NCBI RefSeq assembly: GCF_943181405.1
Contig: NZ_CALPBY010000001.1
Coordinates: 1,013,649 to 1,077,648, forward strand
Source of the DNA: Cellulosimicrobium sp. Marseille-Q4280
Lineage (GTDB): Bacteria; Actinomycetota; Actinomycetes; Actinomycetales; Cellulomonadaceae
DNA: 64,000 bases
Direction: 5' to 3'
Made by a program: the position numbers and the translations under genes. Numbering within the stretch: position 1 is the stretch's first letter; every line of letters begins with the position of its first letter. A model generated the notes under the pieces. That model ran no database searches, had not been told where the DNA came from, and worked only from the letters and a program-made list of their open reading frames with translations. Shown in pieces: positions 17,501 to 64,000 of the stretch.

Positions 17501-17654
17501 TCCGCGGTCACGCGAAGCAGTACGCGGTCACGCGAAGCAGTACGCGGTCCCGCGAAGCAGTACGCGGTCCCACGAAGTAGTACTGCAGCCTCGCGAAGTA
17601 GTACCGCAGCCGGGACCGCGGTACTACCTCGCGGAACCGGGGTACTACCTCGCG
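17501..17654. repeat. 20-bp tandem repeats ending in a hairpin
   Basis: Four 20-bp units (type TACGCGGTCACGCGAAGCAG) at 17501-17580 are followed by a 21-bp unit and then by inverted copies. The arms CGCGAAGTAGTACCGC (17592-17607) and 17618-17633 pair with one mismatch, and a second inverted half follows at about 17639-17654. The spacer between metG and tatD therefore consists almost wholly of this repeat, which is related to 301-356. Confidence 0.8.
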
Positions 17655-19460
17655 TCAGGCGTCCTCGCGCAGCCGGTCGAGCTCCTCCTCGACGATCGAC
17701 TCGTCGAGCTTGGTGAAGACCGGCGTCGGCTTGCCGACCGGCGTCCCGGGCACGACGGCGCGCGGCTGCCACGAGGGGATGCCCTCGCCACCCTGCCCGC
17801 TCCGGTAGTCCCCGGTGATGACCGGGTAGTGCCGCGAGTCGTCGTCGAGGTCGGTGACCTCCTCGATGCGCGGCTGCGGCGCGAAGGTGCCCGTCCCGCC
17901 GAACGCCTCGTGCACCTGCTGAGCCGAGTGCGGCAGGAACGGCGAGAGGATCGTGTTGAGGTCGCTCACGGCCTGCGTCACCGTGTGCAGCACGGTCCCG
18001 AGGCGCTCAGGGTCCGTCTTGAGCTTCCACGGCTCGGTGTCCGAGACGTACTTGTTGACCTCACCGACCGTCTTCATGGCCTCGGCCACGGCGGCGCGCT
18101 GGCGGTGCGTCGCGATGAGGTCGCCGACCCGACCGAACGCCGTGGTCGTCGTCGCGAGCACGCCCTCGTCGATCGGGTGCCGCTCGCCCGGGGTCGGGAT
18201 CTCGCCGAAGTTCTTGTGCACCATGCTCGCCGTGCGGTTCACGAGGTTGCCCCAGCCCGCGACGAGCTCGTCGTTCGTGCGGCGCTGGAAGTCCGCCCAC
18301 GTGAAGTCGACGTCCTGCGTCTCCGGGCCGGCCGACGCCACGTAGTAGCGGAACGCGTCCGGCTGGTAGCGCGCGAGCATGTCGCGCACGTAGATGACGA
18401 CGCCGCGCGACGACGAGAACTTCTGGCCCTCGACGTTGAGGAACTCGCTCGACACGACCTCGGTCGGCAGCTGCAGGTTGCCGTACGGACCCGGAGCGCC
18501 GCCCTTGTTCCCCCGCCCGTCGTAGGCCAGCAGCTCGGCCGGCCAGATCTGGGAGTGGAACGTGATGTTGTCCTTGCCCATGAAGTAGTACGAGCGCGCG
18601 TCGGGGTCGTTCCAGTACGCGCGCCACGCGTCGGGGTCGCCCGTGCGTCGCGCCCACTCGATCGACGCCGACAGGTACCCGATCACCGCGTCGAACCACA
18701 CGTACAGGCGCTTGCTCGGGTTGTCCTCCCAGCCCTCGAGCGGGACGGGGATGCCCCAGTCGATGTCGCGCGTCATGGCCCGCGGCCGGACGTCGTCGAG
18801 CAGGTTGAGCGAGAACTTCAGGACGTTCGGGCGCCACGCGGTCCGGGTGCGCAGCCAGTCGCCCAGCGCGTCGACGAACGCCGGCAGGTCGAGGAAGAAG
18901 TGGTTCGACTCGACGAACTTCGGCGTCTCCCCGTTGATGCGGCTCTTCGGGTTGATGAGGTCGATCGCGTCGAGCTGGTTGCCGCAGTTGTCGCACTGGT
19001 CGCCGCGAGCGCCGTCGTACCCGCAGATGGGGCACGTGCCCTCGATGTAGCGGTCCGGCAGCGTGCGGCCCGTCGACGGCGAGATCGCGCCCATGGTCTT
19101 CTTCTCGACCATGTAGCCGTTCTTGTGCACCGTGCGGAACATCTCCTGCACGACGGCGTAGTGGTTGCGCGTCGTGGTCCGCGTGAACAGGTCGTAGGAG
19201 AGCCCGAGCTGCTGCAGGTCCTCGACGATCACCCGGTTGTACCGGTCCGCGAGCTCCTGCGCGCTGACACCCTCCTTGTCGGCCTGGACGAGGATCGGCG
19301 TGCCGTGCTCGTCGGTGCCCGACACCATGAGGACGTCGTGACCCGCCATCCGCATGTGCCGGCTGAAGACGTCCGAGGGGACACCGAAACCTGCGACGTG
19401 ACCGATGTGGCGCGGGCCGTTCGCGTACGGCCACGCCACGGCCGAGAGGATGTGGGTCAT
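17655..19460 (-). CDS. metG: Methionyl-tRNA synthetase
   Basis: A 601-residue class I synthetase that charges tRNA-Met. The HIGH motif appears as [11 protein letters not shown] near residue 20, and the KMSKS equivalent is KFSSSRG near residue 347. The zinc-binding knuckle [19 protein letters not shown] is intact, as in the E. coli-type enzyme. The C-terminus ends shortly after the anticodon-binding domain, without a tRNA-binding extension. ATG 19460 is chosen because [15 protein letters not shown] is the family N-terminus; longer in-frame extensions run through a repeat element. TAGGAT lies 8 nt upstream. First gene of the metG-tatD-rpf cluster. Confidence 0.97.
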
Positions 19461-19536: not shown

Positions 19537-19631
19537 GAGGCGGGGCGGGGTGTCGCGGGTCTACCATCCGCCGCTCGTCCCTCGCGGCTCCCGCCAGGCC
19601 CACCACGACCCGCGACACCCCGCCCCGCCTC
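19537..19631. repeat. Inverted-repeat element with 45-bp conserved core, copy 1
   Basis: Two perfect 25-bp inverted arms (19537-19561 and 19607-19631, beginning GAGGCGGGGCGGGGTG) enclose a 45-bp core starting TACCATCCGCCGCTCGTCCC. The core matches copy 2 at 63796-63840 (opposite strand) at 43 of 45 positions, while the arms differ between copies yet remain self-complementary. The core contains its own stem-loop. It lies between the metG start and the end of the upstream rpf paralogue. No coding potential is evident. Confidence 0.8.
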
Positions 19632-19670
19632 ACCCTCGGTGTGCTGCTCACCCTCCAGCGGGACGGCGAC

Positions 19671-19703
19671 GGGCCCGCGACCTCCGCCAGAGGTCGCGGG
19701 CCC
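19671..19703 (-). terminator. Terminator of the rpf paralogue at 19724
   Basis: GGGCCCGCGACCTC, the loop CGCCA and GAGGTCGCGGGCCC form a perfect 14-bp stem directly downstream of the stop codon. Confidence 0.75.
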
Positions 19704-19723
19704 GCGGCGAGGCGTGCGTCGGC

Positions 19724-62725: not shown

Positions 62726-63685
62726 GTGACCCCCGAGCCCACGCACCCGCGGAAGATCGTCCTCGACTGCGACCCGGGCCACGACGACGCCGTGGCGATG
62801 CTCCTCGCGCACGGCTCCCCCGCGATCGACCTCGTCGCCGTGACGACCGTCGCGGGCAACCAGACGCTCGAGAAGGTCACGCGCAACGCCCTGTCCGTCG
62901 CGGAGGTCGCGGGGATCCACGTGCCGGTCGCGGCGGGCTGCGACCGCCCGCTCGTCCGGCCGCGGATCGTCGCCCCCGACATCCACGGCGACTCGGGGAT
63001 GGACGGTCCCGTCCTGCCTGCCCCGCGCCGCGCCGTCGACCCGCGGCACGCCGTCGATCTCATCGTCGAGACGGTCCTCGCGGCGGAGCCCGGCGAGATC
63101 ACGCTCGTGCCCGTCGGTCCGCTGACCAACATCGCGACGGCGGCGCGCAAGGAGCCACGCATCGTGCCGCGCGTGCGCGAGGTCGTGATGATGGGCGGAG
63201 CGTTCCACGGCGGCAACCGCACGCCCACGGCCGAGTTCAACGTGCTCGCCGACCCGGAGGCCGCGCACGTCGTCCTGAACGAGGCGTGGCCGGTCACGAT
63301 GGTCGGTCTCGACCTCACGCACCAGGCCGTCGCCACCCCCGACGTGCGCGACCGGCTCGCCGCCCTCGGCACCGGACCGGCGCGCTTCGTCGGCGAGCTG
63401 CTCGACTTCTACGGCGGCACGTACAGCGCCACCCAGGCCTTCCCGCACCCGCCGGTCCACGACCCGTGCGCCGTCGCGTACGTGGCGGACCCCGACGTCA
63501 TGACGACGCGCCGCGCGCCGGTCGACGTCGAGCTCACCGGCGCCCTCACGACCGGCATGACCGTCGTCGACCTGCGCGGCGACGAGCCGGCCGAGTGCCG
63601 CACCCAGGTCGGCGTCACGCTCGACCACGACCGCTTCTGGACCCAGGTCGTCGACGCCCTCCGCCGCATCGGTGACCCGTCGTAG
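62726..63685 (+). CDS. Nucleoside hydrolase (IunH/RihA family)
   Basis: A 319-residue enzyme that cleaves the N-glycosidic bond of nucleosides. The calcium-binding DCDPGHDDAVAML motif near residue 14, TVAGNQTLEKVTRNAL, ITLVPVGPLTNIATA near 130, VVMMGGAFHGGNRTPTAEFNVLADPEAAHVV, and the late VHDPCAVAYVADP near 245 give all ligands of the family. Pyrimidine or purine preference cannot be told. GTG 62726 has GAGGAT 6 nt upstream and no Shine-Dalgarno (leaderless). Convergent with the ABC ATPase fragment. Confidence 0.94.
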   Translation: MTPEPTHPRKIVLDCDPGHDDAVAMLLAHGSPAIDLVAVTTVAGNQTLEKVTRNALSVAEVAGIHVPVAAGCDRPLVRPRIVAPDIHGDSGMDGPVLPAPRRAVDPRHAVDLIVETVLAAEPGEITLVPVGPLTNIATAARKEPRIVPRVREVVMMGGAFHGGNRTPTAEFNVLADPEAAHVVLNEAWPVTMVGLDLTHQAVATPDVRDRLAALGTGPARFVGELLDFYGGTYSATQAFPHPPVHDPCAVAYVADPDVMTTRRAPVDVELTGALTTGMTVVDLRGDEPAECRTQVGVTLDHDRFWTQVVDALRRIGDPS

Positions 63686-63691
63686 CGACCG

Positions 63692-64000
63692 CTAGCAGGC
63701 CGCCGCGGCGCGTCCTGTCGATCGGACGAGCGGCGACGACCTGCTGGAGGCGGCGCACCGAGCGGCTGGCGGTGGAGCGAGGGGTGGGGCGGGTCGTGGT
63801 GGGTCTGGCGGGAGCCGCCAGGGACGAGCGGCGGATGGTAGACCCGCCCCGCCCCTCGCGGAACCGTCCGCCGCGGACCCGTGCACGGGCGGACGACAGC
63901 CGAGGGCGGCCTTGAGGAACTCCTGCGTGCGCTCGTGGGTCGGGTTGGTGAACATCGTCTCGGGGTGAGCCTCCTCGATTAAGTGCCCCTGGGCGAACAT
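63692..64000 (-). CDS. Amino-acid ABC transporter ATPase, C-terminal part with odd tail
   Basis: The frame is open at the window edge. The visible start GHLIEEAHPETMFTNPTHERTQEFLKAAL is the normal C-terminal end of GlnQ-type ATPases (polar amino acid uptake). Such proteins usually stop here, but this frame continues for about 70 more residues (LGCRPPVHGSAADG and on) straight through the inverted-repeat element at 63777-63859 and ends at 63692. The extra tail is Pro/Arg-rich and has no family similarity, so the original stop has probably been lost. Confidence 0.7.
   Translation of the reverse strand: MFAQGHLIEEAHPETMFTNPTHERTQEFLKAALGCRPPVHGSAADGSARGGAGLPSAARPWRLPPDPPRPAPPLAPPPAARCAASSRSSPLVRSTGRAAAAC
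63777..63859. repeat. Inverted-repeat element with 45-bp conserved core, copy 2
   Basis: Arms 63777-63795 and 63841-63859 (GCGAGGGGTGGGGCGGGTC type, one mismatch) enclose a core at 63796-63840 that matches the reverse complement of the core at 19562-19606 in 43 of 45 positions. The core contains CTGGCGG-GAG-CCGCCAG, a perfect 7-bp stem-loop. It lies inside the tail of the ABC ATPase reading frame. Confidence 0.8.

What the first reader, a model, noticed from the sequence alone, without database searches (positions are those of the whole stretch)
19537..19631. Dispersed inverted-repeat element: conserved 45-bp core, arms that differ but stay self-complementary
The cores at 19562-19606 and 63796-63840 (opposite strands) are identical at 43 of 45 positions. 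The flanking arms (25 bp perfect in copy 1, 19 bp with one mismatch in copy 2) have different sequences between the copies, but each pairs with its own partner. Sequence change with kept pairing argues for selection on a folded DNA or RNA, or for a MITE-like element mobilised through its ends. The core has an internal stem-loop. I know of no named actinobacterial element with this layout.
Basis: seen in the sequence. Interest (0 to 1): 0.8.

Follow-up and report, generated by a model that had tools for sequence, protein, structure and literature searches.

The report
Dispersed hairpin repeat, variable arms
An actinobacterium carries dozens of copies of a mobile-looking DNA hairpin whose tip is nearly constant while its long arms change freely but stay paired; copies sit just after genes and even inside proteins, and what moves them is unknown.

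Summary
The two copies belong to a family of about 45 copies in this genome (a Cellulosimicrobium, judged from relatives), found in all 17 genomes searched of the genus and sporadically elsewhere in the class. Copies share one layout: a long arm pair (P1) of free sequence, a conserved asymmetric loop, a second covarying stem (P2) and a conserved cap. In sets of 16 and 62 copies, 22 and 23 of 24 pairs change on both sides. Mispairs inside helices are G·T rather than A·C (46 to 7) on one strand, whatever the direction of neighbouring genes, so one strand is selected to fold. Copies lie just 3' of genes (1 of 113 in a divergent gap) or in frame between protein domains (NHL-thioredoxin, LigD, UvrD). 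Orthologous sites show presence, absence and in-place compensatory change. No Y1 (IS200/RAYT) transposase in 22 genomes, reverse transcriptase in only 2 of 22, no Rfam match. Best reading: a REP/RPE-like, non-autonomous palindrome built inside-out (constant tip, free ends). The MITE-through-its-ends reading is not supported. Whether RNA or single-stranded DNA is the selected form, and what moves it, is unresolved.

The parts
19537..19631 (-). copy 1 of the element (the strand inferred to fold reads GTGG... on the minus strand)
19537..19561 (-). copy 1, P1 arm (3' arm on the folding strand), 25 bp perfect
19607..19631 (-). copy 1, P1 arm (5' arm on the folding strand)
19562..19569 (-). copy 1, conserved unpaired strand GGATGGTA (3' side of the apical loop)
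19570..19574 (-). copy 1, P2 stem, 3' side on the folding strand
   Evidence: covarying stem
19575..19583 (-). copy 1, cap GAGGGACGA (fits G·A, A·G, G-C and a GNA triloop)
   Evidence: pairing inside the cap is inferred
19584..19588 (-). copy 1, P2 stem, 5' side on the folding strand
19589..19606 (-). copy 1, conserved unpaired strand GTGGTGGGCCTGGCGGGA (5' side of the apical loop)
63777..63859 (+). copy 2 of the element (folding strand = plus strand)
63777..63795 (+). copy 2, P1 5' arm, 19 bp with one mispair (G·T on this strand)
63796..63840 (+). copy 2, core with P2 at 63814-63818 / 63828-63832; its cap reads CAGGGACGA, so the outer G·A pair of the inferred cap is not kept here
63841..63859 (+). 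copy 2, P1 3' arm
63762..63773 (+). copy 2, possible outer stem P0, separated from P1 by GGA (partner 63863-63874, 10 of 12 pairs counted by eye)
   Evidence: sequence; a GGA/GGA loop after P1 was found in 12 of 126 copies
17655..19460 (-). metG (methionyl-tRNA synthetase), gene downstream of copy 1
   Evidence: Pfam PF09334
19724..21049 (-). gene for a DUF348/G5-domain protein, upstream of copy 1
62726..63685 (+). nucleoside hydrolase gene ending 91 bases before copy 2

Best explanation
It is a family of dispersed, non-autonomous palindromic elements that behave like REP/RPE elements but are built inside-out: the recognition part is the tip, and the arms only have to pair. On one strand (the 'GTGG' strand) the sequence forms a rod: P1, about 18-30 bp of free sequence; a conserved asymmetric loop (mostly C-GTGGYGGGNCTGGCGGGA on one side, GGATGGTA-G on the other); P2, 4-7 bp of free sequence; and a cap that fits tandem G·A pairs and a GNA triloop. 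Shown: the fold and its covariation, dispersal, presence/absence at orthologous sites, placement after genes and in frame between protein domains, and a one-strand wobble bias. Inferred: an unidentified trans-acting factor recognises the single-stranded tip and lets the element be copied elsewhere, and copies survive where they do little harm. I think RNA slightly likelier than single-stranded DNA as the selected molecule (about 55:45).
For: Covariation: 22 of 24 pairs two-sided in 16 copies, 95.8% of cells paired, 0 of 500 shuffles; 23 of 24 in 62 distinct rows, 98.0% paired (an alignment fitted to the structure). In-place compensation at orthologous sites: 4 pairs two-sided in 6 sequences at the NHL-thioredoxin site, with T-A, T·G and C-G at one pair (19 of 500 shuffles reach 4 pairs, none reaches the 8 cells), 3 pairs in 5 distinct sequences at the transporter site (15 of 500 reach 3). 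Strand: G·T 46 against A·C 7 in 89 elements, while mispairs outside the helix run the other way, 41 to 166. By neighbours: ++ 8:0, -- 14:2, +- 8:1, antisense to a predicted frame 15:3, sense to one 1:1. Other caps keep the G·A frame: GACGAAGGA, GAGCTTGCGA and GAGCGAAGCGA. Mobility: element in the metG upstream gap of 6 of 17 genus genomes, patchy on the metG tree; in the NHL-thioredoxin gene intact in 4 of 16, a truncated relic in 1, absent in 11. Recent amplification: many copies per genome with one and the same score, 23 read copies identical over 83 bases (found by that string). Placement: 1 divergent of 113 gaps against 99 of 402 background gaps.
Against: No mobilising enzyme found: Y1_Tnp 0 of 22 genomes, reverse transcriptase 2 of 22. 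Some sites look old for a purely selfish element: diverged copies, well paired by eye, persist between infB and rbfA or nrdE and nrdF in genera with one or few copies. No promoter scan or transcript evidence. Target-site duplications could not be read because the compared flanks have diverged.
Confidence: 0.62

Rival explanations
1. Host-useful hairpin: a terminator or mRNA-stabilising 3' structure in the mRNA of the gene it follows.
For: Of 88 copies with a gene ending on the right, 49 have its predicted end 36-73 bases from the core, a terminator-like spacing; sites between infB and rbfA, nrdE and nrdF, and a binding protein and permease; predicted energies of -58 to -78 kcal/mol.
Against: The mRNA of those genes carries the CTACC strand, yet wobble is tolerated on the other strand (-- class 14:2, frame-antisense class 15:3); a terminator does not need a conserved tip; copies sit inside reading frames; before metG in this genome a separate terminator-like hairpin lies between the upstream gene and copy 1 (seen).
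Confidence: 0.15
2. A family of small RNA genes (trans-acting sRNA or protein-binding RNA) that has multiplied.
For: One-strand fold and conserved unpaired bases.
Against: Little conserved sequence outside the arms in 65 aligned copies (no promoter scan was run); no common neighbours among the loci read; in-frame copies in coding regions; no Rfam match.
Confidence: 0.13
3. Arms are kept complementary by template-switch repair of palindromes, without selection on the fold.
For: Arms of free sequence stay paired over 20-30 bp with few mispairs in many copies.
Against: Such a process should be strand-symmetric and predicts equal G·T and A·C; observed 46:7. The tip is conserved between families.
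Confidence: 0.05
4. A classical MITE moved by a transposase that recognises its terminal inverted repeats.
For: Inverted repeats, intergenic dispersal, presence/absence.
Against: The ends have no common sequence. Y1_Tnp absent; other transposase families were not searched.
Confidence: 0.05

Closest known systems
Rickettsia palindromic elements (RPE)
   Same: Palindromes of about 150 bp, dispersed, inserted in frame inside protein-coding genes (passages of PMC10969869, and PMC3733652).
   Different: No sequence comparison was made; R. conorii RPEs are said to end in a CGTC tag (PMC3733652 passage); here the ends are unconserved and the tip is conserved.
REP elements of the GTAG/CGTC super-families, and REPINs
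   Same: Placement after coding regions in tandem and convergent gaps, intragenic copies in replication and repair genes, GT pairs in stems (PMC3733652 passages); REPINs have a hairpin-forming spacer with compensatory changes (PMC3116915 passage).
   Different: REPs are 20-40 bp (abstract start) with a tag at one end, and REPINs have conserved ends around a less conserved middle; here a conserved middle sits inside variable ends, and no Y1 transposase was found.
Enterobacterial repeat units RU-1 (127 bp; ERIC, equation recalled)
   Same: Small mobile sequences in intergenic regions that can also be fused into reading frames (abstract of PMC2759123).
   Different: Other host group; conserved along their length (recalled).
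Bacterial MITEs
   Same: Small, non-autonomous, inverted repeats.
   Different: Defined by terminal inverted repeats (recalled) and typically AT-rich (PMC10969869 passage); here GC-rich with free ends.

Membership tests
REP (GTAG/CGTC super-families) | GTAG or CGTC tetranucleotide at one end of a 20-40 bp palindrome | tested here: not met
   GTAG occurs inside the apical loop, 3' of P2, and not in all copies (GGATGGTAG 57 and GGAGGGTAG 2 of 89; GGATGGAAG 10, GGATGGCAG 6); P1 plus tip is at least about 85 bases.
REP (GTAG/CGTC super-families) | downstream of genes, tandem and convergent gaps preferred | tested here: met
   71 tandem, 41 convergent, 1 divergent of 113 copies with both neighbours
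REP/RAYT system | associated Y1 (IS200/IS605-type) transposase in the genome | tested here: not met
   PF01797 in 0 of 22 genomes, 12 of them copy-rich; the control rang in 5 of 14 known genomes
REPIN | two inverted conserved REPs at the ends, less conserved spacer | tested here: not met
   ends variable, middle conserved and asymmetric
Rickettsia palindromic element | in-frame insertion in protein-coding genes | tested here: met
   NHL-thioredoxin, 7 of 14 chosen proteins; in 8 of 9 further frames scanned the element lies between Pfam domains; 20 elements overlapped a predicted frame, 3 of which have weak coding support on one side
Rickettsia palindromic element | sequence kinship with RPE families | not tested
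   no RPE sequence was fetched or compared
MITE | conserved terminal inverted repeats and target-site duplication | tested here: inconclusive
   conserved terminal repeats not met; duplications not readable at diverged sites
Known Rfam RNA families | match at the gathering score | tested here: not met
   window and 17 related loci gave tRNAs only; the sub-threshold hits lie far below their gathering scores

The most novel reading that the evidence does not exclude
A selfish element propagated through the single-stranded fold of its tip rather than through its ends: any pair of complementary arms will do, so the ends drift freely while the tip is recognised by an unknown RNA- or ssDNA-dependent copying machinery that is neither a Y1 transposase nor a consistently present reverse transcriptase.
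Probability: 0.25. Interest if true: 0.85.

Novelty: new variant of a known kind. Interest (0 to 1): 0.6.

Why it matters
Small palindromic repeats are common in bacteria, but how those without a dedicated transposase spread is open. Here the conserved and the free parts are swapped relative to REPs, REPINs and MITEs, orthologous and polymorphic sites exist in many related genomes, and the strand that matters can be read from the mispairs. It also adds an actinobacterial case to the palindromes known to become parts of proteins, here in DNA-repair genes such as LigD and UvrD.

Tried and rejected
Rfam assignment: only tRNAs at gathering score; low-score hits are far below their gathering scores. 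Actinomyces-1 motif (recalled as a candidate): seven Actinomyces loci matched no Rfam family but a tRNA at gathering score. Y1 transposase and reverse transcriptase as movers. Common regulon: the neighbours read differ. Phage carriage: the exact pattern has no match in viral contigs; the phage and plasmid record collections were not searched. Replication-strand bias as a test of ssDNA: no bias if the origin is at coordinate 1 (G098 15:19, G049 9:13, G010 6:7), but a dnaA motif was not found in the first 4 kb and sampled GC skew was flat in G098 and G088, so inconclusive. Conserved flanks beyond the arms: little, except in a subfamily. A regular GGA/GGA loop followed by an outer stem: only 12 of 126 copies; their outer stems pair 6.75 of 8 against 5.0 with swapped partners.

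Caveats on counts: copies and orthologs are not independent, so the binomial value (2e-8) is only indicative. The pattern required the cap frame, so its cap tally shows the middle base only; caps outside that frame exist (GAGGACCGA, CAGGGACGA, GGGGGACGA, GAGGGACGG among the rows). The gene finder behind searches is a home-made codon-score caller trained on 23 window frames. Fixed patterns drop diverged copies (parsed 34 copies; 8 loci gave none that was new); copies near a locus end were dropped. The 14 proteins were chosen by me from 120 listed of 7999. The tool scored a capped number of candidates per genome (150 of 13753; 30, 15 and 11), so those copy numbers are lower bounds, and the weakest hits were not all inspected.

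Full report
Observation. The 25-bp arms and 45-base core of copy 1 are exactly where stated (19537-19631), and six Markov surrogates of the window gave at most a 12-bp perfect arm at such loop sizes. Copy 2 shares 43 of 45 core bases on the opposite strand. Both strands of both copies fold better than all 200 shuffles.

A family in the genome. A DNA search of the window's own genome (4.86 Mb, 12 contigs) listed 44 matches: 40 over most of the query at E <= 3.4e-9, two partial ones, two at E about 1. A covariance model built from 16 copies listed 50, 46 at E <= 2e-4; those 16 match by construction. Two copies at contig starts may be one locus. Reading the copies showed one layout on what I call the GTGG strand: arm P1, CGTGGYGGGYCTGGCGGGA, stem P2, GAGGRACGA, P2', GGATGGTAG, P1'. 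P2 differs between copies and is perfect in 27 of the 34 copies parsed.

Covariation. On 16 copies with a 6-bp P2, 22 of 24 pairs have changes on both sides and 95.8% of cells pair; no shuffle of 500 and no slid register comes near. On 62 distinct rows, including other genera, the figures are 23 of 24 and 98.0% (that alignment was fitted to the structure and holds one reversed row, removed before the second model).

Which strand folds. Inside the helices of 89 elements G·T outnumbers A·C 46 to 7 on the GTGG strand, while outside the helices A·C prevails (166 to 41); a first count on 65 elements gave 22 to 2. The bias is present whether the neighbours run with the element, against it or converge on it, and where it is antisense to a predicted frame (15:3); the four elements sense to a frame give 1:1. 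So the GTGG strand appears selected to fold irrespective of local transcription. The cap agrees: in most copies it reads GAGGNACGA, which fits G·A, A·G, a G-C pair and a GNA triloop; in one genus it reads GACGAAGGA, with the inner pair flipped, and elsewhere GAGCTTGCGA or GAGCGAAGCGA. The cap pairing is my inference, and exceptions exist, copy 2 of the window (CAGGGACGA) among them. Such motifs are stable in RNA and DNA (recalled), so they do not decide between the two.

Distribution. At E <= 0.01 the element was found in 54 of 150 family genomes and 12 of 25 genera, including all 17 members of the window's genus; at E <= 0.001 in 23 of 297 genomes of the order; at E <= 1e-4 in 6 of 394 of the class, three of them outside the order. 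Counts at E <= 1e-5 in four genomes are 22, 34, 58 and 13. Viral contigs: none. The genus name for the window rests on contigs of its genus mates that recur by length and on the protein names.

Presence, absence and age. In the metG upstream gap, 6 of 17 genus genomes have the element, 9 with the same upstream gene end do not, and 2 have another upstream sequence without it in the 300 bases read; the pattern is patchy on a metG tree. In the gene for an NHL-domain thioredoxin it is an in-frame insertion: 7 of 14 proteins that I chose have it and 7 lack it; at DNA level 4 of 16 genomes have it intact, one has a truncated relic and 11 lack it. At that site six sequences show T-A, T·G and C-G at the same pair, so compensation happens in place; a transporter site shows the same more weakly. 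Other shared or recurring sites are infB-rbfA and nrdE-nrdF. Further frames carrying the element between Pfam domains are LigD (four records, both orientations), UvrD/PcrA, biotin carboxylase, an RNase H-like/AAA protein and a GntR-aminotransferase regulator, 8 of 9 scanned; an ABC protein was undecided.

Placement. Of 142 elements, 27 overlap a predicted frame and 2 lack a neighbour; of the remaining 113, 47 are tandem with the GTGG strand antisense, 24 tandem sense, 41 convergent and 1 divergent, against 237 tandem, 66 convergent and 99 divergent background gaps. The gene ending on the right lies 36-73 bases from the core in 49 of 88 cases.

Mover. No Y1 transposase in 22 genomes; reverse transcriptases in 2 of 22. 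Many copies with one and the same score point to recent amplification; one such subfamily has 21-base tandem repeats, in mirror orientation on the two sides where both are present.

Comparison. A published survey (PMC3733652; passages read) describes REPs as lying downstream of genes, in tandem and convergent gaps, sometimes inside repair genes, and with GT pairs in their stems, and RPEs as in-frame insertions. The element works like these. It is not a REP member by the tests made: no terminal tag, no Y1 transposase, and the conserved part is the tip, not the ends. REPINs show compensatory changes in a spacer between conserved ends (PMC3116915 passage), the reverse layout.

Verdict. A real family of dispersed palindromes under strand-specific selection for its fold, for which the searches named above found no description; a new variant of the REP/RPE kind. 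The mechanism of spread and the molecule selected remain open.

Noticed in passing
window 17615-17652: Two units of a 21-base tandem repeat (ACCGCGGTACTACCTCG...) that elsewhere in the genus accompanies a subfamily of the hairpins, in mirror orientation on the two sides.
   Followed up: partly
L101-L116 (several genus genomes): An identical 83-base core plus P1 occurs at several loci per genome, with diverged flanks and variable numbers of 21-base repeats.
   Followed up: partly
   Followed up: partly
L189, L196 (Actinomyces oris records): The element lies directly downstream of a dnaA-like gene and upstream of a dnaN-like gene (names from reading the translations).
   Followed up: no
L178-L235 (Actinomyces records): A variant with a GAA/GA-type internal loop a few pairs below the tip, read by eye; similar copies occur in the window's genome (L026, L032).
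   Followed up: partly
window 19670-19704: A separate GC-rich, terminator-like hairpin follows the G5-domain gene, just upstream of copy 1.
   Followed up: no
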